Notes under the pieces: model-generated | The model's input: the letters and a program-made list of their open reading frames with translations, nothing else | What the model was told of the DNA's origin: nothing | Database searches by the model: none | Made by a program: the position numbers and the translations under genes | Shown here: positions 22,380 through 39,296 of the stretch, piece after piece | Layout: every line of letters starts with the position of its first letter | Numbering within the stretch: position 1 is the stretch's first letter | Source: Eubacteriales bacterium | GTDB taxonomy: Bacteria > Bacillota > Clostridia > Saccharofermentanales > DTU023 | DNA: 64,000 bases | NCBI GenBank assembly: GCA_030532065.1 | Contig: JAUNLW010000001.1 | Location: 430,132 to 494,131 of the forward strand | Direction: 5' to 3'

Positions 22380-22422
22380 CTTTAGATTATAAATGATTGG
22401 TCCATGATAGGAGGAAAAATAC

Positions 22423-22686: not shown

Positions 22687-22697
22687 GTGGTATCACT

Positions 22698-22928: not shown

Positions 22929-22939
22929 GTTGACCCACC

Positions 22940-23464: not shown

Positions 23465-23477
23465 TGGAGACTAGCAA

Positions 23478-24233
23478 ATGCGTTTTAGTGCACTGAGTCT
23501 GTTTCCGGAGCAAATACGTGCCGGACTGGAATGGTCTATAACTCAAAGGGCTTTACAACAAGAACTCTTTGAGCTTTATTATGGGCAAATCAGAGACTTT
23601 GCTATTAACGATTATGGACAGGTAGACGATAAACTATATGCGGGTGGAGTGGGTATGTTGCTAATGCCGGAGCCCATCTACCAAAGTGTAGATGCTGCCA
23701 GGGCAGCCTTTAACAGCAGCTGGTCCGATAATGATAATGCTGTTCCCAAAGAAAAACTTATCTATATGTCTCCACGTGGCAGAGTACTGGATCAAGTCTA
23801 TGCGCGTTCTTTACTTGATTATGACCACGTCATCATCTTATCTGGCCACTATGAGGGTGTGGATCAGCGTGTATTGGATCAATGCGGTTTTGAGGAGCTT
23901 TCCGTAGGCGACTATGTGCTAACCGGCGGTGAACTGGCCACCTGTGTCCTCATAGACTGCGTTATCCGCATGATCCCCGGTGTCTTACCGTCGGAAGAAG
24001 CTTGGCAAGGAGAATCTCACGCGTCCGGCTTTTTAGAGGAAAATCAGTATACCCGACCTGCAAGCTGGAGAGATTCACAGGTGCCAGAAGTTTTAATCTC
24101 CGGTCATCAAGCCAAAATAGAAGCATATAGACAGGCTTCACGTATCGCCAACACTCTCCGAAACAGGCCTGATCTCTTGGCGAATAAAATCTTAAGTGAA
24201 GAGGAGTGGTTTAATTTTTTGGAGCAGCTCTAA
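23478..24233 (+). CDS. trmD: tRNA (guanine-N1)-methyltransferase TrmD
   Basis: This 251-residue SPOUT enzyme methylates G37 of tRNAs. Conserved segments include YAGGVGMLLMPEP, LSGHYEGVDQRVLDQ and the trefoil-knot loop LSVGDYVLTGGELA. The gene ends the rpsP operon here with a strong terminator. rplS, its normal next neighbour, is 9 kb away. Confidence 0.97.
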   Translation: MRFSALSLFPEQIRAGLEWSITQRALQQELFELYYGQIRDFAINDYGQVDDKLYAGGVGMLLMPEPIYQSVDAARAAFNSSWSDNDNAVPKEKLIYMSPRGRVLDQVYARSLLDYDHVIILSGHYEGVDQRVLDQCGFEELSVGDYVLTGGELATCVLIDCVIRMIPGVLPSEEAWQGESHASGFLEENQYTRPASWRDSQVPEVLISGHQAKIEAYRQASRIANTLRNRPDLLANKILSEEEWFNFLEQL

Positions 24234-24259
24234 AGTTTTATTTGGATGATTCTGATAGT

Positions 24260-24296
24260 GAAAAAGCCGGTGTGGAAAATTCACACCGGCTTTTTC
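24260..24296. terminator. Bidirectional terminator after trmD
   Basis: GAAAAAGCCGGTGTG (24260-24274) is the exact inverse complement of 24282-24296, with a 7-base loop. A/T runs flank both sides, so it can stop trmD transcripts from the left and the minus-strand gene at 24331 from the right. Confidence 0.9.
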
Positions 24297-24330
24297 AACC
24301 TGTAAGGACTTTCGCCCAGTACGTCATAAA

Positions 24331-24936
24331 CTAGCGAACTTTACGCAAAATCAAGAGCAGGAAAGCAGGAGCTAAGCTTACAGCTAAGGGAGAGGCTACA
24401 GAAGTAGCTACCAACTCAGTAGTCGGCTTAGCGTCCATAGGTTTTTGTTCTGGCTCAGCTTCAGCAGTCTTTGCGGGAGCGGTAGGAGCATATAAAGGTG
24501 CAGCTTCAACCTCTTCGTCTTCCTTAGGAGGAGGAGCGGGAGCATACAGGGAATCAGCAGGCTGTTCAGCTGCTTGTTGCGCAGGAGCTGCTTGATCAGT
24601 ATTTTTGCTGCCTAAGACTGTAACTATGCTGGTGCCAGTTGTTCTTATGGTAGCATTTCTTTCTAAAACAATAAGGACAGTTACTTCATAGACGCCGGGG
24701 ACATTCGTGTCTAAAGCTTCCAGATTATTTCCGGCTTCATCTACAACCTTAATTAAGGTTATGGTGAACTGATTGTCTTTGAGAAATTCGAGGCTTCCAG
24801 CACCGCTAGGCCATTCTTGGATCAGGTTTACCGCACCTGCAAAACCTTGTTTATTTAGTAACATTTTAGGCGAGAAGTTAGCACCTTGGTTAAGGGTTAG
24901 TGCTTCTTTCATCCGAGCTTCGAGATATACTTTCAT
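24331..24936 (-). CDS. Truncated cell-surface protein fragment with C-terminal membrane anchor
   Basis: I do not recognise a specific family. The 201 residues look like the C-terminal end of a larger wall protein. A stretch near residues 70-110 (DTNVPGVYEVTVLIVLE and TSIVTVLG) resembles a bacterial Ig-like beta domain. It is followed by a Pro/Ala/Glu-rich spacer (APAPPPKEDEEVEAAPLYAP) and a final hydrophobic helix with a basic tail (LAPAFLLLILRKVR), as in surface anchors. There is no signal peptide at the proposed ATG, and the frame stays open upstream of it, overlapping a hydrolase remnant. It is probably a decayed gene end brought here by rearrangement. Confidence 0.45.
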   Translation of the reverse strand: MKVYLEARMKEALTLNQGANFSPKMLLNKQGFAGAVNLIQEWPSGAGSLEFLKDNQFTITLIKVVDEAGNNLEALDTNVPGVYEVTVLIVLERNATIRTTGTSIVTVLGSKNTDQAAPAQQAAEQPADSLYAPAPPPKEDEEVEAAPLYAPTAPAKTAEAEPEQKPMDAKPTTELVATSVASPLAVSLAPAFLLLILRKVR

Positions 24937-25115
24937 CTCACCCTGCGCTTTAACGTCCAGTAGAAAATCGCTAAAGCACTTGCATAAGTACAGACACTGT
25001 AGGCTCCCCAGCTATGGCCGAAAAGGAAAAGAGGAAGATTCTTAGCAAAATCCTGTTTCTGAACAAAAGAAATGGCATGGTCAAGGTCGATCACCCCAAA
25101 CTCTAAGCTCAACAA
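24933..25115 (-). pseudogene. Remnant of an alpha/beta hydrolase
   Basis: About 45 residues match the central part of a serine hydrolase: DLDHAISFVQKQ followed by LPLFLFGHSWGAYSV, where GHSWG is a nucleophile elbow. The N-terminal beta strands, the oxyanion region and the whole C-terminal half with catalytic Asp and His are missing. The homology ends near 24985 and the frame then closes by running into the surface-protein fragment. This is a broken gene, unrelated in detail to the intact hydrolase at 25192-26076. Confidence 0.55.
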
Positions 25116-25150
25116 GAAAGCCGCCTCGCTTATATGGAGACGGCTTCTTG
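25113..25150. repeat. Strong hairpin at the broken end of the hydrolase remnant
   Basis: CAAGAA (25113-25118) plus GCCG (25120-25123) pair with CGGC (25141-25144) plus TTCTTG (25145-25150), with one bulged base. CTC/GAG extends the stem inward. It lies 42 bases past the stop of the intact hydrolase gene (minus strand) and could end its transcript, though no T-run follows. Confidence 0.5.
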
Positions 25151-25191
25151 CTCAATGAGCATAATTTTTGAGAAAGGGTTAATCTAAAGAA

Positions 25192-26076
25192 TTAGTCTTC
25201 AGAAATGAATTTGAGAATTTCTTCGCGGGTCTTCTGGTAGTAATCCTTTTCCAGATACATGGCGTGTCCAGCACCGTGTAAGTGCAAGAGTTTTGAACTT
25301 TCAGGAAGCTCTTTGACGGCCTGATAGCAGCGATCGATGTTTACATAGAAGTCATTATCGCCGGTAATGATGAGAACGGGTACTTTAACTGCTTTGGTAT
25401 CAATTAACCAGCCATCACCGATTTCCATAATCTCTTTTGCGCCGCCATTAGGACGTCCGTGGCCGGCGTCTTGAGCATAGGTATTATTAACCCAAAGTCC
25501 GTGTAATTCTGGTTCAACAGTGTCAAAGTCCGTTTCTAATTCGTTAGTACCAGGGATGTGCTGCCAAACACGAATTACATAACCGTAATTCAAATCAGAG
25601 AAAGGTTCGGTCATAGGCACAGGATCGAAGGCACCACCAAAGCAGGGTCCAAGCCAGACTACTTTATGAAGCAGGTCGGGTCTCTGAGAAGCTACTTTCG
25701 CGGTGGTCATTGTTCCCCAAGACCAGCCTAAGAGATCACACTTTTCAACGCCTTGTAATTTGCAGATTTTTTCCAAGGCATAAATTTGATCTTCAGCCGC
25801 GTTCTGTGTAGTAACATCCCATCCATTCTCATATTTCTCAGATTTACCATAACCGCCTAAGTCAAGGCGCCAAACGGTATAGCCATTCTTGGCAAAGTAT
25901 TCACATACGCTGTAATCTTTGTATTTTATATCAAAGACATGCTGCGTATATGTCAGACCATGCACCATAAGGATGTTTTTGTGTTGCCAGCTAGCAGGGC
26001 AGTCGAATTTGGTTAGATACAGCATTTTGCCGTTATCTTCTCTTTTCAGATCAACTACTTCACAATTGTAACGCAT
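25192..26076 (-). CDS. Alpha/beta hydrolase of the reductase island
   Basis: This 294-residue protein is a complete alpha/beta hydrolase. The oxyanion segment is MVHGLTYTQH, the nucleophile Ser sits in GWSWGT (about residue 125), the acid is in ITGDNDFYV and the His in GAGHAMYLE. Such enzymes cleave esters, amides, thioesters or C-C bonds; nothing here fixes the substrate. No signal peptide is present, so it acts in the cytoplasm. The start at 26076 follows AAGGAG; the in-frame ATGs upstream lack a site. It lies last in a minus-strand arm with the oxidoreductase and permease genes, but a 180-base gap with a TATAAT box and repeats suggests its own promoter. Confidence 0.88.
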   Translation of the reverse strand: MRYNCEVVDLKREDNGKMLYLTKFDCPASWQHKNILMVHGLTYTQHVFDIKYKDYSVCEYFAKNGYTVWRLDLGGYGKSEKYENGWDVTTQNAAEDQIYALEKICKLQGVEKCDLLGWSWGTMTTAKVASQRPDLLHKVVWLGPCFGGAFDPVPMTEPFSDLNYGYVIRVWQHIPGTNELETDFDTVEPELHGLWVNNTYAQDAGHGRPNGGAKEIMEIGDGWLIDTKAVKVPVLIITGDNDFYVNIDRCYQAVKELPESSKLLHLHGAGHAMYLEKDYYQKTREEILKFISED

Positions 26077-26162
26077 TAGTTTTCTCCTTCTAATTCTACA
26101 AATCATTGAGTGTTCCATTTAACTCTGCTTTGTAGTAGATGCGTTAAGCCTATTACTGACTG

Positions 26163-26168
26163 ATTATA
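26163..26168 (-). promoter_or_regulatory. -10 box for the island hydrolase gene
   Basis: TATAAT on the minus strand, 87 bases before the hydrolase start. No good -35 lies at the right distance; instead the two 13-bp repeats occupy that region, which fits an activator-dependent promoter. Confidence 0.4.
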
Positions 26169-26189
26169 AAATAAACCTGCACTCTCTGA

Positions 26190-26230
26190 AATTGTTTAGA
26201 ATTTGCACAAAACTTAGAATTGTTTAGAAT
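26190..26230. repeat. Two perfect 13-bp direct repeats upstream of the hydrolase gene
   Basis: AATTGTTTAGAAT occurs at 26190-26202 and again at 26218-26230, with a 28-base period. They lie just upstream of the minus-strand TATAAT box and are likely regulator-binding sites. Confidence 0.6.
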
Positions 26231-26257
26231 AAGTATTAGTGATTATGCCAGCCGAGA

Positions 26258-26884
26258 TTAGATTGAATCATTAAGGCACAGTTCAAATACTTCTTCCCAA
26301 ACATCTCTGGGCTGCGCTCCGCTCAAAACATATTTACCGTTCACTATGAAGCCTGGAACATTACCATTCAATCCAACGAGATCATTAGTTTTAGCATTCT
26401 CTATTAGCTTATGTTCCCAAATGGGCTCTGTTAGTGCTTTATCTAAGCTTATTGGAGGTAATCCTACTTGCAATATAGCTTGAAGGATTACGTTTGGATC
26501 ACTTATATTTTGCCCTTTGAACATATATAAGTCCCATATCTGATTAAGAAAAGCTTCTCCTTTACCTTTGCTTAGAGCATATTCAGCTACGCGCAAAGCG
26601 CTGTGTGTATTTGAAAAGATGTCTTTTTCAAAGAAATGAATACCATAGGGCTGACCTATGGTATTCAATACATCGTAAAATTGTTTTGGATCTTCTAAAT
26701 GCCAGCTCATAGGCATTCCGTGTATGGGAGCATCTGGATGTATTTCCATGAATAGATAATCTAGCTGAAAATCATACTTATCCCTTAGTGAATCAAGCAT
26801 ATATTTGCCCAAACAACACCATTCACAGATGATATCTAGCAGCATGACCACATGTATTTTTTTCTCTTCAACCCGAGTATCCAT
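26258..26884 (-). CDS. DsbA/FrnE-like thiol oxidoreductase
   Basis: This 208-residue protein has the thioredoxin-like fold with helical insert found in FrnE and 2-hydroxychromene-2-carboxylate isomerase relatives. The active site is CEWC (Cys20 and Cys23, followed by another Cys24), and the cis-Pro loop and end are VPGFIVNGKYVLSGAQ. No signal peptide is present, so it is cytoplasmic, as for FrnE-type proteins. It could handle a thiol or disulfide intermediate, or supply reducing equivalents to the nearby selenoprotein; this is inference. The ATG at 26884 (after AGGGG) is preferred to GTG at 26890. It starts eight bases after the permease stop and is co-transcribed with it. Confidence 0.85.
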   Translation of the reverse strand: MDTRVEEKKIHVVMLLDIICEWCCLGKYMLDSLRDKYDFQLDYLFMEIHPDAPIHGMPMSWHLEDPKQFYDVLNTIGQPYGIHFFEKDIFSNTHSALRVAEYALSKGKGEAFLNQIWDLYMFKGQNISDPNVILQAILQVGLPPISLDKALTEPIWEHKLIENAKTNDLVGLNGNVPGFIVNGKYVLSGAQPRDVWEEVFELCLNDSI

Positions 26885-26892
26885 AAACACCC

Positions 26893-28611
26893 CTAACTTA
26901 GTAATTCTGGCATTGGATCTATTCCCAAATATATGAAAAGACCTACTAGCAAGGATACTATTAAACTATACATGAGACAGGGGACAATATTTATTCGAAT
27001 TAGCTTACCTTCATTGCCATTTGTACCTGTTGTGGCACAAACAGAAACTATATTATTTACGCAGATCATATTGCCGATACATCCTCCCATCGACTGTAAT
27101 GCAACAATGAAGACAGGAGAAGTTCCTATTAGAGTAGCTGTTTCAAACTGGAGAGAGGCGAACAGTGTGTTAGATACCGTACATGATCCAGACATAAAAG
27201 AACCTAGGACACCTAACAAAGGTGCTACTAAGAAGTAACCTTTGGGGAATAATTTAGCTAAAGCTCTAGCCATTACATAAAGCATACTGCTGTTAGTGAA
27301 ATTGAAATCTCCACCAAAACTATCTGCCGCAACTATACTACCTATAGCCGCGTTACTGGTATAGCGGTACATATTGACCATGGCTACACCAAATAACAGC
27401 GCGACCGCTGCACCTGAAACTTGTTTAAAAGATTCTCTGATTGCAGCTTTAGCGTCATCTCTACGCATATGATGGATAAAAATGGTTAGCAAAGCTATGG
27501 GAATAAAAGGCATAATTCCCGCATTGTACAGAAACTTAAAATCCCAGTTAACTCCCTGTACTCCTAAAATGTCGTGAATTTTAATAGTTAGCTTATCTGC
27601 CGTAAAAAATGTTTTTAATCCGAATAAATTAAGCCGGCTAGCAACCAGCATTAGACTAATGATTATATAAGGCATCCAAGCGAGGATAGGCTTCATATTA
27701 GTATCTTTGACCGAGGAAACTACAGTAGTGGATTGCCAGGATGGATGCCCCCAATCTTGATGTCCTTCAAATGTCCAAACTTTTTTCGGCATCATGAAAC
27801 CTTTTTTTGCGGCAAAAATAAGAATAGGGAGCGCGCCCAAGAACGACACCATCGAAACCAGTTCTGGTGCAGAAGTCAGAGCCAATAATATATACAACGT
27901 ACCAACAACCGCTGCCGTGAGGAGACAAAATGGAATGGCTGGAAGTGCGTCTTTGAAGGAATGGTTCTTGCCAAAAACTTTTACCAGCACAAAAACTCCG
28001 GCCATAATAATAAAAATTCCGCCAATCATATGTGGGATACAAACCCATTTCGTCAATTCAGAAGTAAACTCTGCTGGATCACCACCACGCAAAATAACAG
28101 CATCTGAGACAACACGAGAAGCAGTCAATAAAGGAACACCTACAGGTCCTGGATTAACAGGAGTGGAATTATAAATTAGGCAAACTGAAGCGGCTGCTAA
28201 CGGAGGAAACCCTAAACTGATTAAGATAGGTGCAGCAAGTGCGGCAGGTGTACCAAAGCCGGCAGACCCCTCAATAAATCCTGCGAAAACGAAACCAATT
28301 AAAATTGCTTGAATTCTAGCATCTTCAGTTATACCGGAAAACATTTTATTAATTGAGGCCATTGCGCCTGATTGCTTTAAAATGTTCATCAGTAATATAG
28401 CGCCAAAAATGATAGCGATTGTTTCAAAAGCTCCAAGAAACCCGGAGATTGTACGCGCTGAAATTTCGTGCGCGGACATTTTCCAAATAAAGCCTGCGGT
28501 TAGACATGCTACTAGCCAAGATAGAATTAATGATTTTTTTGCAGGCCAATTAAAGAAAACCATTAAAACTACAGTAAGTAGAATCGGAACTGAAGCTATT
28601 AAAGCATACAC
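26893..28611 (-). CDS. LctP-family (L-lactate/2-hydroxyacid type) permease
   Basis: This 572-residue membrane protein has about 13-14 hydrophobic helices. The family signature [20 protein letters not shown] is in helix region 110-130, and a second conserved part is [21 protein letters not shown]. LctP proteins take up lactate, glycolate and other small 2-hydroxy acids with protons. Here no lactate dehydrogenase or lactate-use genes are adjacent, so the cargo may be a different small acid. The start is GTG at 28611 with GAGGGGG nine bases upstream. It heads the minus-strand arm of the island, diverging from the TetR gene. Confidence 0.92.
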
Positions 28612-28796
28612 AATACAATTACCCCCTCACATTTACGAGTATCATCCTCAAAAATCAGATGCATTACTGCACTTGGCGGTATGGTAGGCAATTTTTGTTG
28701 AAACAAGCATTGTCAGATTTAGGCAAGTGTCTATATTTACGTTAGATTTAATAATTTTTCTCTGTAAAGTGTTTAATTTTTGTGCATAAAAATTTT

Positions 28797-28851
28797 TTGC
28801 GCAAGTTTTGCAAAACTAATTCTCTAAATCCTCAAGCGTTTCCTTTATAAT
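28797..28851. promoter_or_regulatory. Divergent control region with palindromes and TATAAT box
   Basis: The 297-base gap between the permease and TetR genes is very AT-rich. Two adjacent palindromes, TTGCGCAA (28797-28804) and GTTTTGCAAAAC (28805-28816), lie 30 bases before a plus-strand TATAAT (28846-28851), which itself is 58 bases from the TetR start. The -35 is weak. The palindromes are good candidates for the operator of the adjacent TetR protein. Confidence 0.45.
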
Positions 28852-28908
28852 AGTAACCAAAGTGAAAGTTCGGACGCTTAAATGATTCGTAAAGTAAAGG
28901 GGGTCTTG

Positions 28909-29535
28909 ATGCCTATTAATAAAGTAACCAAAGGCGCTATTTCCTCAGCAATAGAAGAACTTCTATTGACTTGTTCTTTTACTAAAGTTACAGTCAAAGA
29001 CATTGCCGACACCTGCGGTATCAGCAGAAATACTTTTTATTATCATTTCCAGGATAAGTATGAGCTGATGGATTGGATCTTTATGGAAGATTTAGCGGAA
29101 AATGTAAAAAATTATGATGACCCAGATAAACTGGCTGATACTTTTCTTGCCATATGCAGGTTTATGCTTAAGAGGAGAAACCTGTATTATCCATTTTTAC
29201 AGTATAATGGTCAAAATTCTTTGCAAGAAAGATTGACAGAATTCTATTACGAACTTTGGCTTTTGAAAATAAATATGCAATACGCTAATTCTGGATTGAA
29301 ACTACGTGACAATGAATTAGAAGTCTATGCCAGGATGAATGCGCATGCTTTAGTGGGATTAATTTGTGATTGGGTCAACAATGGGATGCGTAATGATTAT
29401 ACGCAGTATCTGGATGAAGTTTACTCCATTATTTATTTACAAGGTGAACTGCACTCAGCAATGTTAGAATGTCGCTTGAACATGAAAGAGAAATCGCCTC
29501 AATCAAATACATTGAATGGAGCAGAAGTTTCCTAA
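28909..29535 (+). CDS. TetR/AcrR-family transcriptional regulator of the reductase island
   Basis: This 208-residue protein has an N-terminal TetR helix-turn-helix (FTKVTVKDIADTCGISRNTFYYHFQDKYEL, residues about 23-52, shown in part by DIADTCGISRNTFYYHF). The C-terminal half is all-helical and resembles the DhaS/TetR_C-type ligand domain. The ATG at 28909 sits six bases after AGGGGG and is preferred to ATG at 28882. Its stop overlaps the ATG of the next gene by one base (TAATG), so regulator and reductase subunit are translationally coupled. It probably controls both island arms. Confidence 0.88.
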   Translation: MPINKVTKGAISSAIEELLLTCSFTKVTVKDIADTCGISRNTFYYHFQDKYELMDWIFMEDLAENVKNYDDPDKLADTFLAICRFMLKRRNLYYPFLQYNGQNSLQERLTEFYYELWLLKINMQYANSGLKLRDNELEVYARMNAHALVGLICDWVNNGMRNDYTQYLDEVYSIIYLQGELHSAMLECRLNMKEKSPQSNTLNGAEVS

Positions 29536-30350
29536 TGAAGCCACTACCTGTTTACTCAAGAGATACTGATTCTTCCGATGAAGATTACAAACCTCCCGTA
29601 CCTTTAATAAATTATGGTATACCTGCCCCCAAACGTTGCGTGTCCATGCTGTTGGCAAAGTACAAGTGTGAAAACTATCATACAGAAGTTGATATGTATG
29701 CACCTGTACAAATGGATAGCCCTGTATTAAAAGTTCCTTTATCTGAGGCCAGAATCATTATGATAACAGACGGTGGATTAGTACCGGTTGGTAATCCAGA
29801 TCGTATTCCACCAACCAATGCAAACAGTTTTGGTATTTACTCTTTTGGTAGATGTAAATCGCTGGAGAGCGGAAATTACGAAGTCTCCCACCAAGGCTAC
29901 TGTCATAACGAGATTGACTTCAATCCTAATCGTCTTTTGCCGGTAGATATTTTATCCTTTTTGACCGATAAAGGCGTAATTGGCGAACTATACCCTTACT
30001 TTGTAAGTACTACCGGTGTAATGGTTCCTTGTGAAAATGCTAAATCTTTGGGAAGCCGCATTGCGGACTTTGTGAAAAAAAGACCTATAGATGCAGCAAT
30101 TATAGTTTCTACTTGTGCTACAAGTACCAGATGTGGATCTTATATTGGAATTGCTCTGGAAAACAAGGATATACCAGCCGTACAAATTACTAATTTAACT
30201 GATATTGCAAAAAGCACAGGGATGCATCGCGTGATTTCAGGTGACAGTGTTGATTGTCCAATTGGCAATAGTAAAATGTCCTCTGAGATTGAGTGGCATT
30301 TTCGACAAAATATTGTTTTAAACGCGCTGAATACTTTGACGCATATTTAA
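29535..30350 (+). CDS. Short GrdB-like protein with Cys in place of selenocysteine
   Basis: The 271 residues are homologous to the C-terminal 60% of GrdB-type selenoproteins and to the selenoprotein encoded 1.5 kb downstream. Matching blocks include ITDGGLVPVGNPD, NYEVSHQGY, FVSTTGVMVP and the active-site region VSTCATSTRCG. At the selenocysteine position it has Cys194 (TGT, 30114-30116). The N-terminal domain of GrdB (about 165 residues) is absent, and there is no stop or frameshift suggesting recent decay. In length it is close to PrdB of D-proline reductase. It could be a partner subunit, a selenium-independent version, or a redox relay. It overlaps the TetR gene by one base. Confidence 0.82.
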   Translation: MKPLPVYSRDTDSSDEDYKPPVPLINYGIPAPKRCVSMLLAKYKCENYHTEVDMYAPVQMDSPVLKVPLSEARIIMITDGGLVPVGNPDRIPPTNANSFGIYSFGRCKSLESGNYEVSHQGYCHNEIDFNPNRLLPVDILSFLTDKGVIGELYPYFVSTTGVMVPCENAKSLGSRIADFVKKRPIDAAIIVSTCATSTRCGSYIGIALENKDIPAVQITNLTDIAKSTGMHRVISGDSVDCPIGNSKMSSEIEWHFRQNIVLNALNTLTHI

Positions 30351-30543
30351 TGTAGTTTTCACACGCATTTAAACAAAATACAGTCTAGTAATTTTGGGCA
30401 ATTTAAATAATTGTCAAAAATCTAAACAGGTAACTTCATTGAGAATTGTGTGCTTTTTATTATGACTGATAATCAAATTGACAGTAATTTACGTCATTTG
30501 GCGGAAATCACAGTAGAAAGAGTATAAGAAGGAGGCTTGTCTA

Positions 30544-31821
30544 ATGAGCAAAAGATTGCAAATTGACTATATCCATATCTACGATGTGCAATTTGGTGAT
30601 GTGACTTCACTTGAAAACGGAGTTCTCACCATTAATAAAGAAGAACTACTAAGCATGGTTGAGAGTGAGCTGTTTGCCGATCTTGATATCAAAATCGCCT
30701 GCCCTGGAGACAGTTGCCGCATCTTAGGTATTCATGACGTTATGCAGCCAAGATGCAAAGCTGATGCTCCAGAAACTAGTTATCCTGGTATTTGGGGTAA
30801 ATTAGCCCCTATGGGAGAAGGTCGCACAGTTGCTCTCAAGGGTGTGGTTGTGTCTGATATTTACTATGCTAAGTGTAATATCAAATACTACTTGGATATG
30901 GGTGGAGAATGCGCGAAATACAGCAATTTTTCCCGACATTTTCATGTGGTTTTGGATGCTAAACCAGCACCGGGCATAAGTGATCTTAGCTACGCTGAAG
31001 CCCTAAAAAACGCATCTTTAACCATAAATGTTTTCCTGGCCAAGTTAGGCTTGGATCAAAAGCCCGATGACACAAAGGTTTATGAATTAGGACCAGTTGG
31101 CCCGGGACCTGATGGCAAGCCTTTGCCAAAAGTTGCTTATCATGTAGTACATATGGCTTCTCATGATACCTGGAATTTTTTGCTTTACGGACAAAGCGCT
31201 TTGAATTTCTTGCCAATAATAGTACAGCCTACTGAGATACTGGATGGTGCCATGATTTGGCGATATTGGGAACCAAACTATTTCCTCCAAGAAGAAGTGT
31301 ATATCAAGGAGCTAATGGATAGACACGGCAAGGATCTCGAATTTGTGGGAGTAGTTTTCTCAAATAATGTAATGAAAATCGATGGTAAAGATGCTATGGG
31401 CATGATGGCAGCTACGCTTTGCAAAGAAACTCTCAAGGCGGATTGCGTTATTGTCAACAAGTCAGGAATGGGTCACTGCCAGCTGGATCAAGCTCTTGCT
31501 TACAATTGGGAAGAGAGCATGGGAATGAAATGTGTTATGAATCTTAGCGCCGTTTCAAATGATAAGCCAGGAGATATGTTGGTTATATCTGATCCCAAAA
31601 TTGATGCTGTAATCAATAGTGGACGCAACTATGATCTGAATCATCCTAAGGTTGAGAGAGTAATAGGTGAAGATAGTAATGTACCCTCCTTAATGGGAGT
31701 CGATGTTAGAGGACCATTCACTCATACTACCAATTTTGCCTATCAAGGAATCTGGTCTCAACTTGGAGATTGCTATGTTACCACAGACGCGGATCTTCCA
31801 TTCAAAAAAGAAACGAGGTAG
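30544..31821 (+). CDS. GrdE/GrdG/GrdI-like reductase component B subunit lacking the pyruvoyl-forming Cys
   Basis: This 425-residue protein is collinear with the GrdE-type proprotein of glycine/sarcosine/betaine reductase component B. Recognisable parts are ACPGDSCRILGIHDVMQPRC (52-71), GRTVALKGVVV (93-103), PTEILDGA (229-236) and RHGKDLEFVGVVFSNN (260-275). In GrdE the chain is cut near residue 242 and a Cys becomes the substrate-binding pyruvoyl group. Here there is no Cys from 124 to 292, and no Cys, Ser or Thr between Thr230 and Ser273; position 242 is Trp. It should therefore remain one uncleaved chain without pyruvate. A strong AAGGAGG precedes the ATG. The selenoprotein gene follows after five bases. 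Confidence 0.85.
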   Translation: MSKRLQIDYIHIYDVQFGDVTSLENGVLTINKEELLSMVESELFADLDIKIACPGDSCRILGIHDVMQPRCKADAPETSYPGIWGKLAPMGEGRTVALKGVVVSDIYYAKCNIKYYLDMGGECAKYSNFSRHFHVVLDAKPAPGISDLSYAEALKNASLTINVFLAKLGLDQKPDDTKVYELGPVGPGPDGKPLPKVAYHVVHMASHDTWNFLLYGQSALNFLPIIVQPTEILDGAMIWRYWEPNYFLQEEVYIKELMDRHGKDLEFVGVVFSNNVMKIDGKDAMGMMAATLCKETLKADCVIVNKSGMGHCQLDQALAYNWEESMGMKCVMNLSAVSNDKPGDMLVISDPKIDAVINSGRNYDLNHPKVERVIGEDSNVPSLMGVDVRGPFTHTTNFAYQGIWSQLGDCYVTTDADLPFKKETR

Positions 31822-31826
31822 ACACA

Positions 31827-33146
31827 ATGGCCAATAAGTTAAAAGTCGTTCATTATATTAACCAGTTTTTTGCAGGCATGGGCGGTGAAGATACGGCTAG
31901 TGTTGGTGTATCTGTGCGTGAAGGTGCGGTTGGCCCAGGTTTAGCGTTACAGAAAGCCTTGGGAGATGAATATAGAATAGTTGCTACTATCGTATGCGGA
32001 GATAATACGATTGCCGAAGACACGGATCGTGTTCTAGAAGAGTTTGGAAAAATAATCAAGAAATATGATCCAGATCTATTTGTCGCTGGTCCTGGATTCA
32101 ATGCTGGACGCTATGGCATAGGTTGTGGAGCTTCAGTCGCTTATGTAACTGAGCAATTGAAAATTCCTGCTGTTACCGGCTTATATGCTGAAAACCCTGG
32201 TACGGATTTATATAAAGATCGTGGCTATATCCTGCAAACAAAAAATAACGCTGCCAGTATGGGCAAGTTTATTCCTGTTTTAGCAAAATTTGCTGATCGT
32301 TTGGTAAAAGGGGAACATATTGGTGATGGTAAGCAGGAAGGCTATCATGGTTCAGGCAAAGCTCCTGAAATCGATTTCAGTATTCCTGCCAGTAAACGTG
32401 GAGTAGATATGCTCCTTAAAAAATACCAAGGCAAAGACTTCTCTACGGAAGTAATTATGCCAAATCACGAAGAAATTCCGGTTCCGGTATTGAACAAGCC
32501 GTTAAGTGAATGTACGATAGCTTTCGTAACAGATGGAGGTTTAGTACCAAAAGGAAATCCCGATAATATGGTTCCTACAAATTCCAAAGAATTTAACCGC
32601 TATAGTATCGGAACAGGTGATGGTCTCAAAGCTGATGATTACGAAGTAAGCCATCAAGGTTACAATAATACCTTCGTACTGGAGGATCCTAACCGGCTTG
32701 TGCCTATTGACGCGGCAATCGCGTTGAAGAAAAAAGGTGAGATTGGCAATCTCTTAGATCATTACTACACCACTGCAGGCGTTATGACACCTATGGAAAA
32801 AGGTAAGCAGTTTGGTTCTGATATTGCGCAAGACTTAAAAGATCACAATGTAGATGCTGTCATTTTGACAAGTACCTGAGGTACCTCCTCTCGCTGCGGC
32901 GCAGTGATGACTAAGGAAATAGAACGAGCAGGTATTCCAGTTGTTCACGTCACTAATCTTACAGAGATTTCTAAAGGTATAGGAAGCCATAGAATTTTAC
33001 GCGGTAACAGCGTACTCCATGTTTTCGGCAATCCTGGGTTGCCACATGAACAGGAAGAAAAGTATCGAGAAAACCATTTAGCAAAAGCTCTAAATATGTT
33101 GGAAGTAAAACCAGAAGCAGGTCAAAACAGCATTGTCGAAGATTAA
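31827..33146 (+). CDS. GrdB-like selenoprotein (UGA at 32877-32879 read as selenocysteine 351)
   Basis: Read through one in-frame TGA, this is a 439-residue protein of the GrdB family, the selenoprotein subunit that reductively cleaves substrate in glycine-type reductases. The N-terminus (KVVHYINQFFAGMGGED, VREGAVGPG, AGPGFNAGRYG, IPAVTGLYAENPG) is typical. The codon in question lies in LTST-U-GTSSRCGA, where the family has selenocysteine at about residue 350. Homology continues after it (IERAGIPVVHVTNLTEIS), and a hairpin follows at SECIS distance. The usual UxxCxxC motif is here UxxSxxC. The start at 31827 follows GAGG by eight bases. Standard gene callers will truncate or split this gene. 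Confidence 0.92.
32880..32907 (+). promoter_or_regulatory. SECIS-like element for selenocysteine insertion
   Basis: Directly after the UGA, bases 32891-32897 (TCGCTGC) pair with 32901-32907 (GCAGTGA) through seven base pairs including one G-U, leaving a GGC loop 19-21 bases after the UGA. Bacterial SECIS hairpins bound by SelB have a G-bearing apical loop at about this distance. Confidence 0.6.
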
Positions 33147-33210
33147 CGGCCTCAGGCTTGATACCTTTTTCTCAAAAGTTGTTTAAAAGTCTCAAAACTG
33201 GCTCAAGCTC

Positions 33211-33239
33211 TTGACTTTAAGACCTGTCCCGGTTAGACT
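33211..33239 (+). promoter_or_regulatory. Promoter of the rplS operon
   Basis: TTGACT (33211-33216), 17-base spacer, TAGACT (33234-33239). It starts 65 bases after the island's last stop codon, so rplS is expressed on its own rather than from the trmD operon. Confidence 0.65.
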
Positions 33240-33249
33240 TTGAAAGTTA

Positions 33250-33289
33250 TTAGGGGTGGTCCGCTGCAATTGCGTGCAAGAACACCTAA
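33250..33289 (+). ncRNA. Candidate ribosomal protein L19 leader structure
   Basis: TTAGGGGTG (33250-33258) pairs with CACCTAA (33283-33289) if two G bases bulge out, and CGC/GCG forms an inner hairpin. The structure begins just after the predicted transcription start and ends 11 bases before the rplS ribosome binding site region. Autoregulatory L19 leaders are known upstream of rplS in low-GC Gram-positives; a match to that family has not been tested. Confidence 0.4.
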
Positions 33290-33310
33290 GCAGAGAGGAG
33301 GATACGCAAT

Positions 33311-33670
33311 ATGGACTTAATCGAAGCTGTAGAACGAGAATATTTGCGCGACAGCTATGACCAGGTTGAGATCGGTGACTACGTTAAAGTACACCTGCAG
33401 ATCCGCGAAGGTCAACGCGTTCGTATTCAGGTTTTTGAGGGTACCGTTATTGCTCGCAAAGGATCTGGCCTCAGCGAAACCATTACGGTTCGTCGCCTGT
33501 CCTATGGTGTTGGCGTAGAACGTGTATTACCTGTCCATTCCCCCCGTATCGATAGGATCGAGATCGTACGTAAGGGTGACGTAAGGCGCGCTAAGCTTTA
33601 CTATATCCGCGATCGTGTGGGAAAGAAGGCAAGAGTCAAGGAAAAGCTCAATGTGAGCAAAGAAGACTAA
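33311..33670 (+). CDS. rplS: Ribosomal protein bL19
   Basis: This 119-residue large-subunit protein lies at the 30S-50S interface. Conserved segments are [39 protein letters not shown] and the C-terminal [12 protein letters not shown] strong GAGAGGAGG precedes the ATG. It normally follows trmD directly; here the accessory island separates them. A hairpin terminator follows. Confidence 0.97.
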
Positions 33671-33679
33671 GCAAGATCA

Positions 33680-33708
33680 AGAGGAGAGCCCCAGGGTTCT
33701 CCTCTTTA
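33680..33708 (+). terminator. Terminator or attenuator between rplS and rbgA
   Basis: AGAGGAGA (33680-33687) pairs with TCTCCTCT (33698-33705), and the stem continues inward with GCC/GGT-type pairs. Only a short T-run (TTTACT) follows, so termination may be partial and allow read-through into rbgA. Confidence 0.65.
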
Positions 33709-33724
33709 CTATGGAGCGATATTT

Positions 33725-34627
33725 ATGGCAGAAGTACAGTGGTTTCCCGGCCATATGGCCAAGACAATACGTGAACTGGGAGAGACGATTAAAGTTTGTG
33801 ACCTGGTTCTGGAACTTTGTGATGCCAGAATCCCCCGCTCCAGCCGTAATCCCATCTTGGATGAGTTGGCGCAGGGCAAGCTACGTCTTCTAGTGCTTAA
33901 CAAGGCGGATCTGGCTGATCCTAAAGCCACTGAGGCCTGGCTCGAACACTTCGAGCAAGAAGGCATGCAAGCTATGGCTATCAATGCTTTAAAAGCAAAT
34001 GATGTTCGTAAGCTGCAACTGCAAATCAAAAAGATGAGCGCGCCAATCAAGGCGAGGGCAGAAGCGCGTGGTCGGCGCAGCCGTCCTATCCGAATCTTAA
34101 TCTGTGGTGTGCCTAATGTAGGCAAATCCAGCCTGATCAACAGTCTTATTGGCCGCAAAAAAGCGGCTACGGCCAATAAGCCGGGTGTAACCCGCAACTT
34201 ACAATGGTTAAAGCTGGGTACCGAATTACAGCTGCTTGACAGCCCAGGTTTACTCTGGCCAAAACTTGAAACCAAAGAAGAACAAATAGCGTTGGGGGCT
34301 GTGGCGGCGGTTAAAGATGACATTCTGCCGCGCGAAGAGCTGGCCGGTGATCTCTTGCTTCTTCTTTTAGAGTACTATAGCTTCATTTTAGGGCCTCAGC
34401 TGGAATTGGATGAAGATGATCTGGCGTCTATTTTTGAACAAGCAAGCAGGGAAGAAGCAGCTCATAGGGCGCTTTATCTGGTAGCCAAGTCTTTTAAGCT
34501 TGTACGGCAAGGTGGCGAGCCTGATCTTCAACGAGCTAGTCAATTTGTGCTCAAACAATTCAGAGCTGCTACTTGGGGAAAATTTAGCTTGGAATTCCCG
34601 GAAGACAAGGAGTTAGATCTTGCCTAA
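33725..34627 (+). CDS. rbgA: Ribosome biogenesis GTPase RbgA (YlqF)
   Basis: This 300-residue circularly permuted GTPase acts late in 50S assembly. The permuted order is visible: G4 LNKADLAD comes first (about residue 60), then G1 GVPNVGKSSLINSLIG (about 128), and G3 DSPGLLWPK. The N-terminal EVQWFPGHMAKT is typical of YlqF. GGAG lies eight bases before the ATG. The end overlaps the next gene. Confidence 0.96.
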   Translation: MAEVQWFPGHMAKTIRELGETIKVCDLVLELCDARIPRSSRNPILDELAQGKLRLLVLNKADLADPKATEAWLEHFEQEGMQAMAINALKANDVRKLQLQIKKMSAPIKARAEARGRRSRPIRILICGVPNVGKSSLINSLIGRKKAATANKPGVTRNLQWLKLGTELQLLDSPGLLWPKLETKEEQIALGAVAAVKDDILPREELAGDLLLLLLEYYSFILGPQLELDEDDLASIFEQASREEAAHRALYLVAKSFKLVRQGGEPDLQRASQFVLKQFRAATWGKFSLEFPEDKELDLA

Positions 34628-35648
34628 CTCGCGCCCTTATAAACCCAGGCTGGGCCAGCGTGATGAAGTCCGGTATCGAGAAATGTCAGCTTTCGAGATA
34701 GAAGCAAAGACAGATGGTTATACGGCTGTTGCAGGTATAGATGAGGCTGGAAGAGGACCTTTGGCTGGTCCGGTTGCGGCAGCCGCCGTTATTTTGAATC
34801 CAGAGCAACCCATAATTGGTCTCAATGACTCTAAGCAACTCTCTGCTAAGAAAAGGCTTTGGCTGGAAAACGAGATCAAAGCTAAGGCGCTCGCCTATAG
34901 CGTAGCCTTTGTAGACGCTTCTCGCATTGATGAGATCAATATCCTGGCAGCCACCAAAGAGGCTATGACTCAGGCCGTTGAAGAGCTTGAACCACTGCCG
35001 GATTATCTGCTTTTGGATGCGGTTTTTTTACCGGGTATCAATCAGCCGCAAAAATCCCTGATCAAAGGCGACTGCAAATCTAATTCCATCGCGGCTGCTT
35101 CTATCTTGGCGAAAACCGCGCGAGACCGCTTTATGGAAGAAGCGGATAAGACCTATCCAGGCTATAGTTTTGCGCAGAATAAAGGTTACGGTACTGCCGC
35201 CCACTATTCTGCACTGGAAAAGCTGGGATTATGTCCTTTACACAGGTTATCTTTTCTAAAAAAAATAAAAGCTGGCGCTAGCAGAACCACTCCCGCTAAG
35301 AATAAAGGTCAGACCGCCGAGCAAAGGGTTGCAGCGCATCTCCAGCGTCAAGGCTATAAAATCTTGGAGCGGAATTTCTTGCTTGCTCCTTTTGCTGAAG
35401 CTGACCTCATTTTGTCCAAGAGTAATTATCTCTACGTGGTTGAAGTTAAGGCACGTTCTGGTCCAGCTGCGGAAACAGCCGCGCTTGCGGCTATTGACCC
35501 CTCAAAAGTAAGTAAATTGCGGCTACTTGCTTCTTACTACGCTGAATCCCGCGGTTTTTCTGACCATACAATCGTACTATTGGCGGCCTTATGCCAACTT
35601 GACAGCCAAGGCAAAGTTGAGCGCATCAAATACTTGGAAATAGATTAA
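34620..35648 (+). CDS. rnhB: Fusion protein: RNase HII domain plus UPF0102 (YraN) nuclease-like domain
   Basis: This 342-residue protein joins two usually separate neighbours. Residues 20-215 are RNase HII, which removes ribonucleotides from DNA; GIDEAGRGPLAGP (Asp41, Glu42) and the later LLLDAVFLPG and KGDCKSNSIAAASILAK segments form the active site. Residues 228-342 are a UPF0102/YraN domain, with QTAEQRVAAHLQRQGYKILE, the ADLIL acidic residue and the VVEVKAR motif of restriction-endonuclease-like folds. The start is TTG at 34620, seven bases after AAGGAG and overlapping the end of rbgA. UPF0102 proteins have no settled role, though the fusion suggests work on RNA-DNA hybrids or damaged DNA. 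Confidence 0.93.
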   Translation: MPNSRPYKPRLGQRDEVRYREMSAFEIEAKTDGYTAVAGIDEAGRGPLAGPVAAAAVILNPEQPIIGLNDSKQLSAKKRLWLENEIKAKALAYSVAFVDASRIDEINILAATKEAMTQAVEELEPLPDYLLLDAVFLPGINQPQKSLIKGDCKSNSIAAASILAKTARDRFMEEADKTYPGYSFAQNKGYGTAAHYSALEKLGLCPLHRLSFLKKIKAGASRTTPAKNKGQTAEQRVAAHLQRQGYKILERNFLLAPFAEADLILSKSNYLYVVEVKARSGPAAETAALAAIDPSKVSKLRLLASYYAESRGFSDHTIVLLAALCQLDSQGKVERIKYLEID

Positions 35649-35693
35649 TTTAGCCGCGATCTCAAAGATTACTTCAGATTAAATGGTCTTGTC

Positions 35694-37052
35694 TTATAAT
35701 TTCTTAGCGCCATGGAAGTCATAGTGCTTGAAGCGAATAGATAAGGCAATATAGCGTGATAATTGGTCTGTCAGTACACCCAACCAGATACCTGTGAGAC
35801 CCCAGCCAAAAACCTCTACCGCTAAATAAGTTACGACTGAACGAATTACACCGACACTAACAATAGACACCGTATTGGTGTATTTCAGATCGCCCGCAGC
35901 TTGCAGAGAACCACTATAAATGATCTGCGAAATTTGGAAAGCGGCAATGACCATAATAAAGTAAGTAATAATAGGTGAGTAGATAGTTAGGATCTCTGGT
36001 TTTTCTCCCTGGAAGAAAACACCAAAGAGAGATTGTCGACCAAAGAACATTGTTATAGCAATAAGGCTGGCCAGAACCAAGCCCATACGCTGGCAGATCT
36101 GGGTGTAACGGCGTGCCTTCCGAGGCTCTTTGGCGCCGAGGCTTTGTCCGGTCAAGGTAACTGCCGCGACTCTCATACCATCGCCGAAGGCAAAGCCGAG
36201 ACTCAAGAGGTTCATGCCTACCTGGTGGATTGCAAACTCATCAGTACCCAGACGGGCAGCCAGGATGGCCGTGACCATAAAGCCAACCCTGAAGCCGATA
36301 AACTCAATCAACATTGTACTCTGGAATTTAATGATAGCTTTAGCCTGTTCCCAGGTGGGACGCAGTTTTTCTGAAATAATGTAAGGAATACTAATAAAAC
36401 TGTTTTTCTTTAATAGATATACCAGACAAATAATAGAGGATACTATGGTACTGAGCACAGTAGCTATTGCCGCCCCGACAACTCCCAGGGCGGGAAAGCC
36501 TAAGTTACCTGTAATCAAAAGGTAGTTAAGGCAGACATTGACCACTGCCGCGGCGACATTCGATATCATCGCAACACTGGTGTTACCAGCGCCGCGCAGG
36601 GCCGCATTGATGAGCATGGAGATAACATTGAAGATAGTACCCCCCATGATGATGCGGAAATAGGCGCTGGCTGACTCATGAGTATCGGCATTACTGCCTA
36701 CAAGTCTCATCAGGTCTTCAGCATAAAACATCAATAAGAAAGTGATGATAACCGTAAGGATTAAGGCATAGATTGAGGCAGTTACCAGTACGCGGTTAGC
36801 GCCGGCTCGGTTGTTTTCACCTTTACGCCGGGCAACAAAGGCTGCCACCGTAGTATTGAGCGCAAAAAAGAGCGTTAGTCCTAAAAATTTAGGCTGGTTT
36901 GTAAGTCCGATCGCTGCTATGGCGTATGATCCTAACTGCGACACCATGATAGTATCAATGATACCGGCTAAAGTAAGAAAGAAGCTTTCTACAACTGACG
37001 GCCAGGCAATACCAATGGTATGTTGAATCAATTCTCTTCTACTTTGCTCCAT
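35694..37052 (-). CDS. MATE-family efflux transporter
   Basis: This 452-residue protein has about 12 hydrophobic helices in two homologous halves, typical of MATE exporters that expel drugs or metabolites using sodium or proton gradients. Conserved parts are the N-terminal AWPSVVESFFLTLAGIIDTIMVS and GAGNTSVAMISNV, and in the second half GFRVGFMV and ALTGQS-like LTGQSLGAKEP. The substrate is unknown. It is convergent with rnhB and divergent from the GntR gene. Confidence 0.92.
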   Translation of the reverse strand: MEQSRRELIQHTIGIAWPSVVESFFLTLAGIIDTIMVSQLGSYAIAAIGLTNQPKFLGLTLFFALNTTVAAFVARRKGENNRAGANRVLVTASIYALILTVIITFLLMFYAEDLMRLVGSNADTHESASAYFRIIMGGTIFNVISMLINAALRGAGNTSVAMISNVAAAVVNVCLNYLLITGNLGFPALGVVGAAIATVLSTIVSSIICLVYLLKKNSFISIPYIISEKLRPTWEQAKAIIKFQSTMLIEFIGFRVGFMVTAILAARLGTDEFAIHQVGMNLLSLGFAFGDGMRVAAVTLTGQSLGAKEPRKARRYTQICQRMGLVLASLIAITMFFGRQSLFGVFFQGEKPEILTIYSPIITYFIMVIAAFQISQIIYSGSLQAAGDLKYTNTVSIVSVGVIRSVVTYLAVEVFGWGLTGIWLGVLTDQLSRYIALSIRFKHYDFHGAKKL

Positions 37053-37294
37053 ACGAAATTCTATACTCTTCCCCCTTAACTGACCTAGCTAAAAATTATA
37101 AATAAAAGCCTAAGAGGCTAAGAAAAAATATATAACAGATTTCCGCAAAAGTATAGCGCTTATGCATAAAATGAGCTTTTTAGACACAAGGCAGGGGCAA
37201 AGGTGAAATAAAAGTATGGTTCATCAACAAGTTAATTACATGGCTCTGAGTCGCTTCCGGTTCAAAACATGGAAAAATCAGCTTATAAAACGGG

Positions 37295-37316
37295 GTGGTA
37301 AGCTGGTTATTACCAC
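37295..37316. promoter_or_regulatory. Inverted repeat, candidate GntR operator
   Basis: GTGGTAA (37295-37301) and TTACCAC (37310-37316) are perfect inverse complements separated by eight bases, and lie just upstream of the gntR -35 box. GT...AC ends are typical of GntR-family sites, so autoregulation is plausible. Confidence 0.45.
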
Positions 37317-37325
37317 TAAATTCTC

Positions 37326-37354
37326 TTTCCAGGAAATATCGCTTATGCTATGAT
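37326..37354 (+). promoter_or_regulatory. Promoter of the gntR-desulfurase-thiI operon
   Basis: TTTCCA (37326-37331), 17-base spacer, TATGAT (37349-37354) preceded by TGC as an extended -10. Confidence 0.55.
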
Positions 37355-37384
37355 GTTAGGACAGCATTCGACTGGGAGGCACAT

Positions 37385-38113
37385 ATGAAGTTAGATCGTC
37401 ATAGTAGCATACCACTATACGCCCAATTGCGTGAGCTTATCTTAGAGCGTGTCCAGGAAGGGACTTATGCTCCCGGTAGTAAAATTCCTTCAGAGATGGA
37501 GTTTTGTCAGGAACTGGATCTCAGCAGGCCTACTGTGCGCCAGGCAGTAGCCGAATTAGTGGCGGACGGTGTTTTGGAGATTCATAAAGGTAAGGGTACC
37601 TTCGTAACGGAAGAAGTGGAAAAGATCGTCATTCCGCATTTTACTGCCCTGAGCTTTTCCTTTCTTAATATGAATAGTTACGAGAATCTTGGCCTCAAGT
37701 CTATCAAACTTTTGGAGCCTGACCGCGAAACTGACAAGTATTTCCAATTTCCCGAAGGCCACAGCCATCCCGGCTATTGGCTGGCGGAATGGCCTCTTAT
37801 TTATGATGATCAAGTCATGGGTAACTGTCAGTCCTATATACCAGTGCAAATATTCCCGGATCTGGGTCAAAGCATTGCGTCCGGTAAGCGTATGGTCGAT
37901 ATCAAATCGAATAAATATGCCTATCTGCCACAGAAGGGAAGCCTGAGTATTTCTGCTCGTCCAGCTCGTAATAAAGAAGCGGCTTTGCTGGAAGTTCCAA
38001 GGCGTTCCTACATCCTGGTCGCGGAAGGACCTTTATTTGCTCGTAGTGGCCATGTCTGCGAGGTCTTGCGTATAATTTTACGCCCCGACCTTATCGCTTT
38101 AGAACTTAATTAG
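37385..38113 (+). CDS. GntR-family transcriptional regulator (UTRA/HutC-like effector domain)
   Basis: This 242-residue regulator has an N-terminal winged helix (PLYAQLRELILERV, PGSKIPSEMEFCQELDLSRPTVRQAVAEL, partly quoted as LDLSRPTVRQAVAEL, and KGKGTFV). The C-terminal domain looks like UTRA, with the ending segment YILVAEGPLFARSGHVCEV. UTRA domains usually sense sugars, amino acids or other small ligands. The ATG at 37385 follows GGGAGG. It is followed after 12 bases by a cysteine desulfurase gene, so it may regulate sulfur transfer, which would be unusual for this family. Confidence 0.88.
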   Translation: MKLDRHSSIPLYAQLRELILERVQEGTYAPGSKIPSEMEFCQELDLSRPTVRQAVAELVADGVLEIHKGKGTFVTEEVEKIVIPHFTALSFSFLNMNSYENLGLKSIKLLEPDRETDKYFQFPEGHSHPGYWLAEWPLIYDDQVMGNCQSYIPVQIFPDLGQSIASGKRMVDIKSNKYAYLPQKGSLSISARPARNKEAALLEVPRRSYILVAEGPLFARSGHVCEVLRIILRPDLIALELN

Positions 38114-38125
38114 CGGTGAGTCAAG

Positions 38126-39277: not shown

Positions 39278-39296
39278 AAGGAGACTTTAAAGTCCT

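What the first reader, a model, noticed from the sequence alone, without database searches (positions are those of the whole stretch)
30544..31821. GrdE-like subunit without a residue able to form a pyruvoyl group
GrdE-type proproteins self-cleave before a Cys near residue 242 and the new N-terminal pyruvoyl group binds the amino substrate as a Schiff base. Here no Cys lies between 124 and 292, and there is no Cys, Ser or Thr at all between Thr230 and Ser273. If the rest of the fold is kept, substrate activation must differ, so the substrate need not be an amine.
Basis: partly seen in the sequence, partly recalled or inferred. Interest (0 to 1): 0.75.

Follow-up and report, generated by a model that had tools for sequence, protein, structure and literature searches.

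The report
Pyruvoyl-free fluoroacetate reductase subunit FarE
This gene looks like one half of an enzyme that gut bacteria use to strip fluorine from the poison fluoroacetate; it lacks the self-cutting cofactor of its amino-acid-reducing cousins, as published for this enzyme, so the surprise is real but mostly explained.

Summary
The 425-aa protein has no Cys from 124 to 292 and no Cys, Ser or Thr from 231 to 272. Two independent alignments put Trp242 in the pyruvoyl-Cys column, followed by a six-residue deletion. All 26 distinct FarE-group proteins aligned share this. Cys293 and Cys301 align far downstream.

It has a name. NCBI's equivalog model for FarE, fluoroacetate reductase subunit, scores it 907 bits (cut-off 675). 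The closest relatives (86% identical) include that of Pyramidobacter C12-8, a rumen isolate enriched on fluoroacetate. Leong et al. (2023) already state that FarE lacks the processing cysteines and is no proprotein.

The next gene is FarB with an in-frame UGA (Sec). The genome holds GrdA, both component-C subunits, thioredoxin genes, SelA, SelD and tRNA-Sec. Most likely FarB's selenocysteine displaces fluoride from fluoroacetate, and the carboxymethyl group passes to GrdA and becomes acetyl phosphate.

Probably new details: the low-GC far cluster splits trmD from rplS; a TetR gene and a stand-alone Cys version of the GrdB C-terminal domain accompany 19 of 27 far loci; several other pyruvoyl-less GrdE lineages exist. 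Whether fluoroacetate is the natural substrate remains open.

The parts
30544..31821 (+). farE: pyruvoyl-less GrdE-type subunit, 425 aa; AGGAGG lies 9-14 bases before the ATG
   Evidence: PF09338 265.8 bits; NCBIfam NF053623.1 FarE equivalog 907 bits, cut-off 675; ORF and sequence
31243..31272 (+). codons for D234-G-A-M-I-W-R-Y-W-E243, which replaces the pyruvoyl segment DGAIISGN|CVSACDK
   Evidence: Alignments; R240, Y241, W242 and E243 are invariant in 24 aligned FarE, W239 is at least 90% conserved
31827..33146 (+). farB: GrdB-type partner with in-frame UGA read as selenocysteine (STUGTSSRCGA)
   Evidence: PF07355 438 bits over residues 5-351 of the read-through; motif
32877..32879 (+). in-frame UGA (selenocysteine codon) of farB
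   Evidence: Sequence; aligns with the Sec of GrdB. The RNA around and after it folds only slightly better than shuffles (z -1.34, 20 of 200 as good)
29535..30350 (+). stand-alone C-terminal half of a GrdB-type protein with Cys in the Sec position (VSTCATSTRCGS); start overlaps the TetR stop (TAATG)
   Evidence: PF07355 139 bits, profile positions 185-347; in 19 of 27 far loci, Cys in all 19
28882..29535 (+). TetR-family regulator, likely controls the cluster
   Evidence: PF14278 and PF00440; present in 21 of 27 far loci
26893..28611 (-). LctP/LldP-type lactate/glycolate permease, divergent; likely importer of the acid substrate
   Evidence: PF02652 345.7 bits; TIGR00795 332.6 bits, just below its cut-off of 341; in 12 of 27 far loci
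26258..26890 (-). DsbA-like thioredoxin-fold protein
   Evidence: PF01323 75.7 bits; relatives in 6 of 27 far loci
25192..26118 (-). alpha/beta hydrolase with a GWSWG (Ser nucleophile) elbow
   Evidence: PF00561 76.7 bits; relatives in 6 of 27 far loci, up to 88% identical
24234..33310 (.). interval between trmD and rplS in which the low-GC far cluster sits
   Evidence: GC of 25192-33146 is 0.396 against 0.464 in the rest; trmD and rplS are about 100 bases apart in both same-genus genomes

Best explanation
The gene encodes FarE, the GrdE-type subunit of a fluoroacetate reductase (FarE plus selenoprotein FarB), carried on an acquired gene cluster. Proposed mechanism: the substrate acid enters through the LldP-type permease; FarE and FarB bind it as a carboxylate with no Schiff base (no pyruvoyl can form); the selenocysteine of FarB attacks the alpha carbon and expels fluoride; the Se-carboxymethyl group passes to GrdA; component C (GrdC/GrdD) releases acetyl phosphate; thioredoxin re-reduces GrdA. 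The conserved W239-R240-Y241-W242-E243 segment that replaced the cleavage loop probably shapes the pocket. Shown here: gene content, family membership, loss of the pyruvoyl site, presence of the partner genes in the genome, purifying selection. From publications: fluoroacetate degradation and induction of the homologous operon in Cloacibacillus. Inferred: substrate, transport, chemistry and the role of the WRYWE segment in this organism.
For: FarE equivalog model 907 bits against a cut-off of 675; the next model, GrdG, gives 185 against 780. The FarE group of 26 is monophyletic with support 100/100. 86% identity to the FarE of Pyramidobacter C12-8, which PMC12366334 (passages) describes as a rumen isolate from enrichment on fluoroacetate; C12-8 has the same order LldP(-)-TetR-short GrdB-FarE-FarB, with alpha/beta hydrolase and DsbA genes nearby. 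76.6% identity to the FarE of an unnamed 3.585-Mb genome whose layout MFS-radical SAM-FarE-FarB matches the published farACEB of C. porcorum. FarE and FarB are adjacent in 27 of 27 loci. FarB lacks the first Cys of the CTRC motif (SSRC), as published for FarB (no CxxC). The same genome has GrdA with in-frame TGA, component C alpha and beta, TrxA/TrxB-like, GrdX and SelD, SelA and tRNA-Sec.
Against: No biochemistry exists for this protein; in the paper I read, the Far assignment rests on induction, comparative genomics and fluoride release, not on a purified enzyme. Leong et al. themselves suggest the preferred substrate may be another compound, one with an amine. The antiporter and radical-SAM genes are missing near this cluster, although the same is reported for P. 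piscolens, which still degrades fluoroacetate at reduced rate. The SECIS-like fold is weak. No solved structure resembles the model significantly, so the binding role of WRYWE is untested.
Confidence: 0.8

Rival explanations
1. It is a FarE-family protein, but the natural substrate is another small acid with a leaving group (for example chloroacetate or a different alpha-substituted acetate released by the neighbouring hydrolases), and fluoroacetate reduction is a side activity.
For: FarE occurs in gut, oral and other anaerobes of Bacillota, Synergistota, Actinomycetota and a Myxococcota MAG, where fluoroacetate exposure is hard to assume. Transporters differ between loci: LldP in 12 of 27, MFS in 5, LrgB in 3; hydrolases also recur: M20 in 6, alpha/beta hydrolase in 6.
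Against: The 23 other FarE sequences of alignment A2 are 63-86% identical to the window's with an invariant RYWE segment, which suggests one substrate class; the nearest named relative comes from a strain enriched on fluoroacetate.
Confidence: 0.35
2. It is a betaine-type (GrdI) subunit, which also lacks the pyruvoyl Cys.
For: GrdI-type proteins beside a BCCT transporter lack the Cys too (6 of 6 loci: L104, L108, L113, L116, L117, L118).
Against: The genome has a separate GrdI/GrdH-like pair beside a BCCT transporter. The pyruvoyl segment differs (SGSFMPASSK against WRYW plus deletion). FarE is a separate clade; FarB scores 386 bits against the GrdH cut-off of 775. The cluster's permease is of the lactate type, not BCCT.
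Confidence: 0.02
3. It is still a proprotein that forms its carbonyl at another Ser, Thr or Cys.
For: Cys71 and Cys301 are invariant in 24 FarE.
Against: Neither aligns with the processing site; the Asn-Cys and the following VSACDK are gone with a 6-residue deletion. Both predicted models are confident single-chain folds (mean pLDDT 89.2 and 89.8), which does not test cleavage.
Confidence: 0.03
4. It is a degraded or non-catalytic relic, kept only to stabilise its selenoprotein partner.
For: PMC3091704 (passage) cites a protein-stabilising role for GrdE-derived proteins.
Against: pN 0.088 with saturated pS against C12-8; 26 distinct FarE across phyla; always paired with FarB. A structural role beside catalysis by FarB is however not excluded.
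Confidence: 0.07

Closest known systems
FarE of the farACEB operon, Cloacibacillus porcorum MFA1 (Leong et al. 2023, PMC10838667); NCBIfam NF053623
   Same: Over the equivalog cut-off; lacks the pyruvoyl cysteines; next to a Sec-containing FarB without the CxxC; same genome has glycine reductase A and C components
   Different: No MFS antiporter or radical-SAM gene here; instead a divergent LldP-type permease, TetR and a stand-alone Cys GrdB C-terminal domain, the layout of Pyramidobacter C12-8
GrdE / GrdG (glycine and sarcosine reductase component B)
   Same: Same Pfam family and similar predicted secondary-structure order; 31% identical to the canonical GrdE-type protein of the same genome
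   Different: No Asn-Cys processing site, 6-residue deletion, WRYWE instead
GrdI (betaine reductase component B)
   Same: Also lacks the pyruvoyl Cys; its substrate cannot form a Schiff base (a quaternary amine, recalled chemistry)
   Different: Keeps the segment length (SGSFMPxSSK), pairs with GrdH and a BCCT transporter; separate branch in the tree
PrdA (D-proline reductase proprotein)
   Same: Distant homology (22.5 bits)
   Different: PrdA carries its pyruvoyl at residue 421 (PMC9908766), longer protein, own operon

Membership tests
FarE (NCBIfam NF053623.1, equivalog) | Score at or above the curated cut-off of 675 bits | tested here: met
   907 bits over 1-419 of 419
FarE (NCBIfam NF053623.1, equivalog) | Lacks the processing cysteines, not a proprotein (published for FarE) | tested here: met
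   Trp242 in the Cys column plus a 6-residue deletion; absence of cleavage itself not testable here
FarE (NCBIfam NF053623.1, equivalog) | Adjacent FarB with in-frame UGA and no CxxC | tested here: met
   STUGTSSRCGA, UGA at 32877
FarE (NCBIfam NF053623.1, equivalog) | Connection to glycine reductase components A and C in the genome | tested here: met
   GrdA, component C alpha and beta
FarE (NCBIfam NF053623.1, equivalog) | Fluoroacetate reduction and induction by fluoroacetate | not testable with these tools
   Published for C. porcorum; degradation also for C. evryensis and P. piscolens (PMC10838667)
Four-gene farACEB form (not defining: reported incomplete in C. evryensis and P. piscolens) | FarA antiporter and FarC radical SAM in the operon | tested here: not met
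   No hit in window 22001-40000 with either protein of L098
GrdE/GrdG proprotein | Asn-Cys processing site that yields pyruvoyl | tested here: not met
   GrdG model 185 bits against 780
GrdI (betaine) | GrdH-type partner and betaine transporter context | tested here: not met
   FarB scores 386 against the GrdH cut-off of 775; permease is LldP type
PrdA | Score above the TIGR04480 cut-off of 700 | tested here: not met
   22.5 bits

The most novel reading that the evidence does not exclude
FarE belongs to a wider set of pyruvoyl-free GrdE lineages that reduce non-amine or non-Schiff-base substrates through a rebuilt pocket (WRYWE in FarE). In FarE the natural substrate is an alpha-substituted acetate other than fluoroacetate, and the co-conserved TetR plus stand-alone Cys GrdB domain is an undescribed part of the system, a substrate sensor or a redox partner of FarB.
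Probability: 0.3. Interest if true: 0.6.

Novelty: new member of a known kind. Interest (0 to 1): 0.38.

Why it matters
Cleavage of a carbon-fluorine bond by a glycine-reductase-type selenoenzyme is an anaerobic route for detoxifying fluoroacetate, a plant toxin of grazing animals. The window shows the system in a lineage outside Synergistota, moved as a cluster into a conserved ribosomal-protein neighbourhood, with accessory genes (LldP permease, TetR, Cys GrdB domain) that the operon description I read does not mention. It makes the mechanism testable: how does this enzyme class activate a substrate without the carbonyl cofactor?

Tried and rejected
No relative by sequence in the PDB. Foldseek gave no PDB match at E <= 0.001; the VIA-align rows (best Z 8.3, 3iuu, residues 191-360 only) look like a common Rossmann-type arrangement and were not used. 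No coordinates of the models are available in the Python box, so pocket geometry around W239-E243 was not measured. Rfam gave nothing in 25000-33400, and the stretch around and after the UGA folds only slightly better than shuffles, so a SECIS is not shown. Flanking direct repeats or a mobile-element gene that would explain the insertion were not recognised. The neighbouring alpha/beta hydrolase was considered as a hydrolytic fluoroacetate dehalogenase and set aside because its nucleophile elbow reads GWSWG (Ser; the Asp of dehalogenases is recalled, not from a call). PMC12184663 (gut C-F cleavage) holds none of the terms glycine reductase, FarE or Cloacibacillus. The pyruvoyl-less tree groups other than FarE sit on long branches, and the treekit output warns that such joins may be false. 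In one search my translation of FarB was one base out of frame and was ignored; the motif hits of that call come from six-frame scans and stand.

Literature searched. 'Fluoroacetate reductase' occurs in two held papers only. I did not search the text for the TetR plus Cys-GrdB pair as such, so its absence from print is claimed only for the one paper of which I read parts 1-3 of 4 (PMC10838667).

Full report
OBSERVATION. The ORF at 30544-31821 is intact, preceded by AGGAGG, and encodes 425 residues. Pfam places it in PF09338, the component-B family of glycine/sarcosine/betaine reductases (265.8 bits).

THE CLEAVAGE COLUMN. I aligned it with GrdE-like proteins from its own and other genomes. Canonical members, including one in the same genome (C27, L002), read DGAIISGN|CVSACDK; the window protein reads DGAMIWRYW, then a six-residue gap, then EPN. 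Among 80 distinct GrdE-like proteins, 26 of 26 FarE-group rows have Trp in the Cys column; 47 of the other 54 have Cys and 7 do not. hhalign of 24 FarE against 21 canonical sequences gives the same register. Cys293 and Cys301 lie far downstream of the site. In 24 FarE, R240, Y241, W242 and E243 are invariant.

WHAT IT IS. NCBIfam identifies the protein as FarE, fluoroacetate reductase subunit (NF053623.1, 907 bits, cut-off 675). I read parts 1-3 of 4 of Leong et al. 2023 (PMC10838667): in C. [quoted passage not shown] FarB lacks the CxxC. P. piscolens lacks the antiporter and the radical SAM yet degrades fluoroacetate at reduced rate. The main point of the finding is therefore in print.

RELATIVES. 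A scan of genome contigs gave 21 loci, 66-86% identical. Named ones include Pyramidobacter sp. C12-8 (86%), Hespellia stercorisuis (84%) and Faecalimonas umbilicata (82%). PMC12366334 (passages) describes C12-8 as a rumen isolate from fluoroacetate enrichment. In 9 genomes behind these loci the FarE model exceeds its cut-off in 8, the ninth (Pyramidobacter RUG.420) scoring 668.8. It does so in 6 of 120 genomes searched as relatives of C12-8 (C12-8 itself counted among them) and in 1 of 398 sampled from the window's phylum, that one being the window's own. In 98 genomes of kin (the own genome counted), the best match outside the own genome was 38% identical. The gene is thus rare and scattered. 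The FarE clade is monophyletic (100/100) and mixes Bacillota, Synergistota, Actinomycetota and Myxococcota; the window protein groups with two Pyramidobacter-type sequences (C12-8 and the unnamed G108) and a Lachnospiraceae MAG (100/99).

THE CLUSTER. Order in the window: alpha/beta hydrolase(-), DsbA-like(-), LldP-type permease(-), TetR(+), short GrdB-like(+), farE(+), farB(+). An unnamed 3.585-Mb genome (L098) has MFS-radical SAM-FarE-FarB-TetR-short GrdB, matching farACEB, and another (L099) lacks the radical SAM; that these are C. porcorum and C. evryensis is inferred. Counts over 27 loci (window, L023-L043, L098-L102; some with short flanks, e.g. L030, L038, L039): FarB 27, TetR 21, LldP 12, alpha/beta hydrolase 6, DsbA 6, M20 6, MFS 5, radical SAM 4, LrgB 3. 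The short GrdB-like protein is labelled as such in 13 loci and appears in 6 more as a second, Cys-bearing hit of FarB, 19 of 27 in all; Cys sits in the Sec column in 19 of 19, never Sec. All 19 have a TetR gene, next to it in 18 by my reading (L035 is the exception).

INSERTION. The cluster lies between trmD (ends 24233) and rplS (starts 33311), whose products Pfam confirms. In both same-genus genomes the two are about 100 bases apart; in 4 of 6 examined relatives they are within about 165 bases, and in 2 of 6 (L124, L126) trmD was not found in the 1.5 kb examined. GC of 25192-33146 is 0.396 against 0.464 for the rest of the window. No flanking repeat or transposase was recognised. The cluster was most likely acquired.

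THE REST OF THE PATHWAY. The genome (1.6 Mb, 27 contigs) holds GrdA with an in-frame TGA, component C alpha (529.6 bits, cut-off 350) and beta (770, cut-off 450), TrxA (134.9, just under its cut-off of 140), thioredoxin reductase, GrdX and SelD, SelA and tRNA-Sec (70.7 bits, cut-off 47). SelB was not searched. It also has a canonical GrdE/GrdB pair (C27) and a GrdI/GrdH-like pair beside a BCCT transporter (C5).

MECHANISM. Inferred: carboxylate-bound fluoroacetate, attack by the FarB selenolate, fluoride release, transfer of the carboxymethyl group to GrdA, acetyl phosphate from component C. Loss of the pyruvoyl fits substrates that cannot form a Schiff base: GrdI-type proteins beside BCCT transporters lack the Cys in 6 of 6 loci. 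Pyruvoyl loss is more frequent than assumed: besides FarE and GrdI, further pyruvoyl-less lineages appear (L004/L105/L091, L089, L070/L090; L109-L112, L114, L119, L120).

STRUCTURE. AlphaFold2 models of FarE (pLDDT 89.2) and of the canonical GrdE of the same genome (89.8) have similar secondary-structure orders; the canonical model has a short helix (253-257) just after the pyruvoyl segment, where FarE has one at 246-249. No PDB relative was found.

VERDICT. Observation confirmed, interpretation supported, explanation largely published; a new member of the FarE kind with some context that I did not find reported. Main uncertainty: natural substrate.

Noticed in passing
29535-30350 and 18 other far loci: Stand-alone GrdB C-terminal domain with Cys in the Sec column, next to TetR in nearly all; absent from the published farACEB description that I read. 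Possible sensor or redox partner.
   Followed up: partly
24234-33310: The far cluster separates trmD from rplS, which are about 100 bases apart in the two same-genus genomes; no mobile-element gene recognised.
   Followed up: partly
L105 (G022, same family as the window genome): Two pyruvoyl-less GrdE-like/GrdB-like pairs and a third GrdB-like gene with a Na/sulfate-type symporter and a radical-SAM protein; not FarE by score (270.5 and 246.6 bits).
   Followed up: partly
L106 (G584): Pyruvoyl-less GrdE-like plus GrdB-like genes beside an amidohydrolase and a dihydroorotate-dehydrogenase-family protein with Fe-S domains, and what looks like a carbamate kinase (recalled by eye): possible reductase fed from a ring or ureide compound.
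   Followed up: no
L109-L112, L119-L120: Further GrdE-like groups without the Cys (SGNYVWPAFK, SDNLAWPLHK, TNQGGLYG), substrates unknown.
   Followed up: no
L003/L104 (C5 of the window's genome): GrdI/GrdH-like pair with a BCCT transporter: a betaine reductase that also lacks the pyruvoyl Cys.
   Followed up: partly
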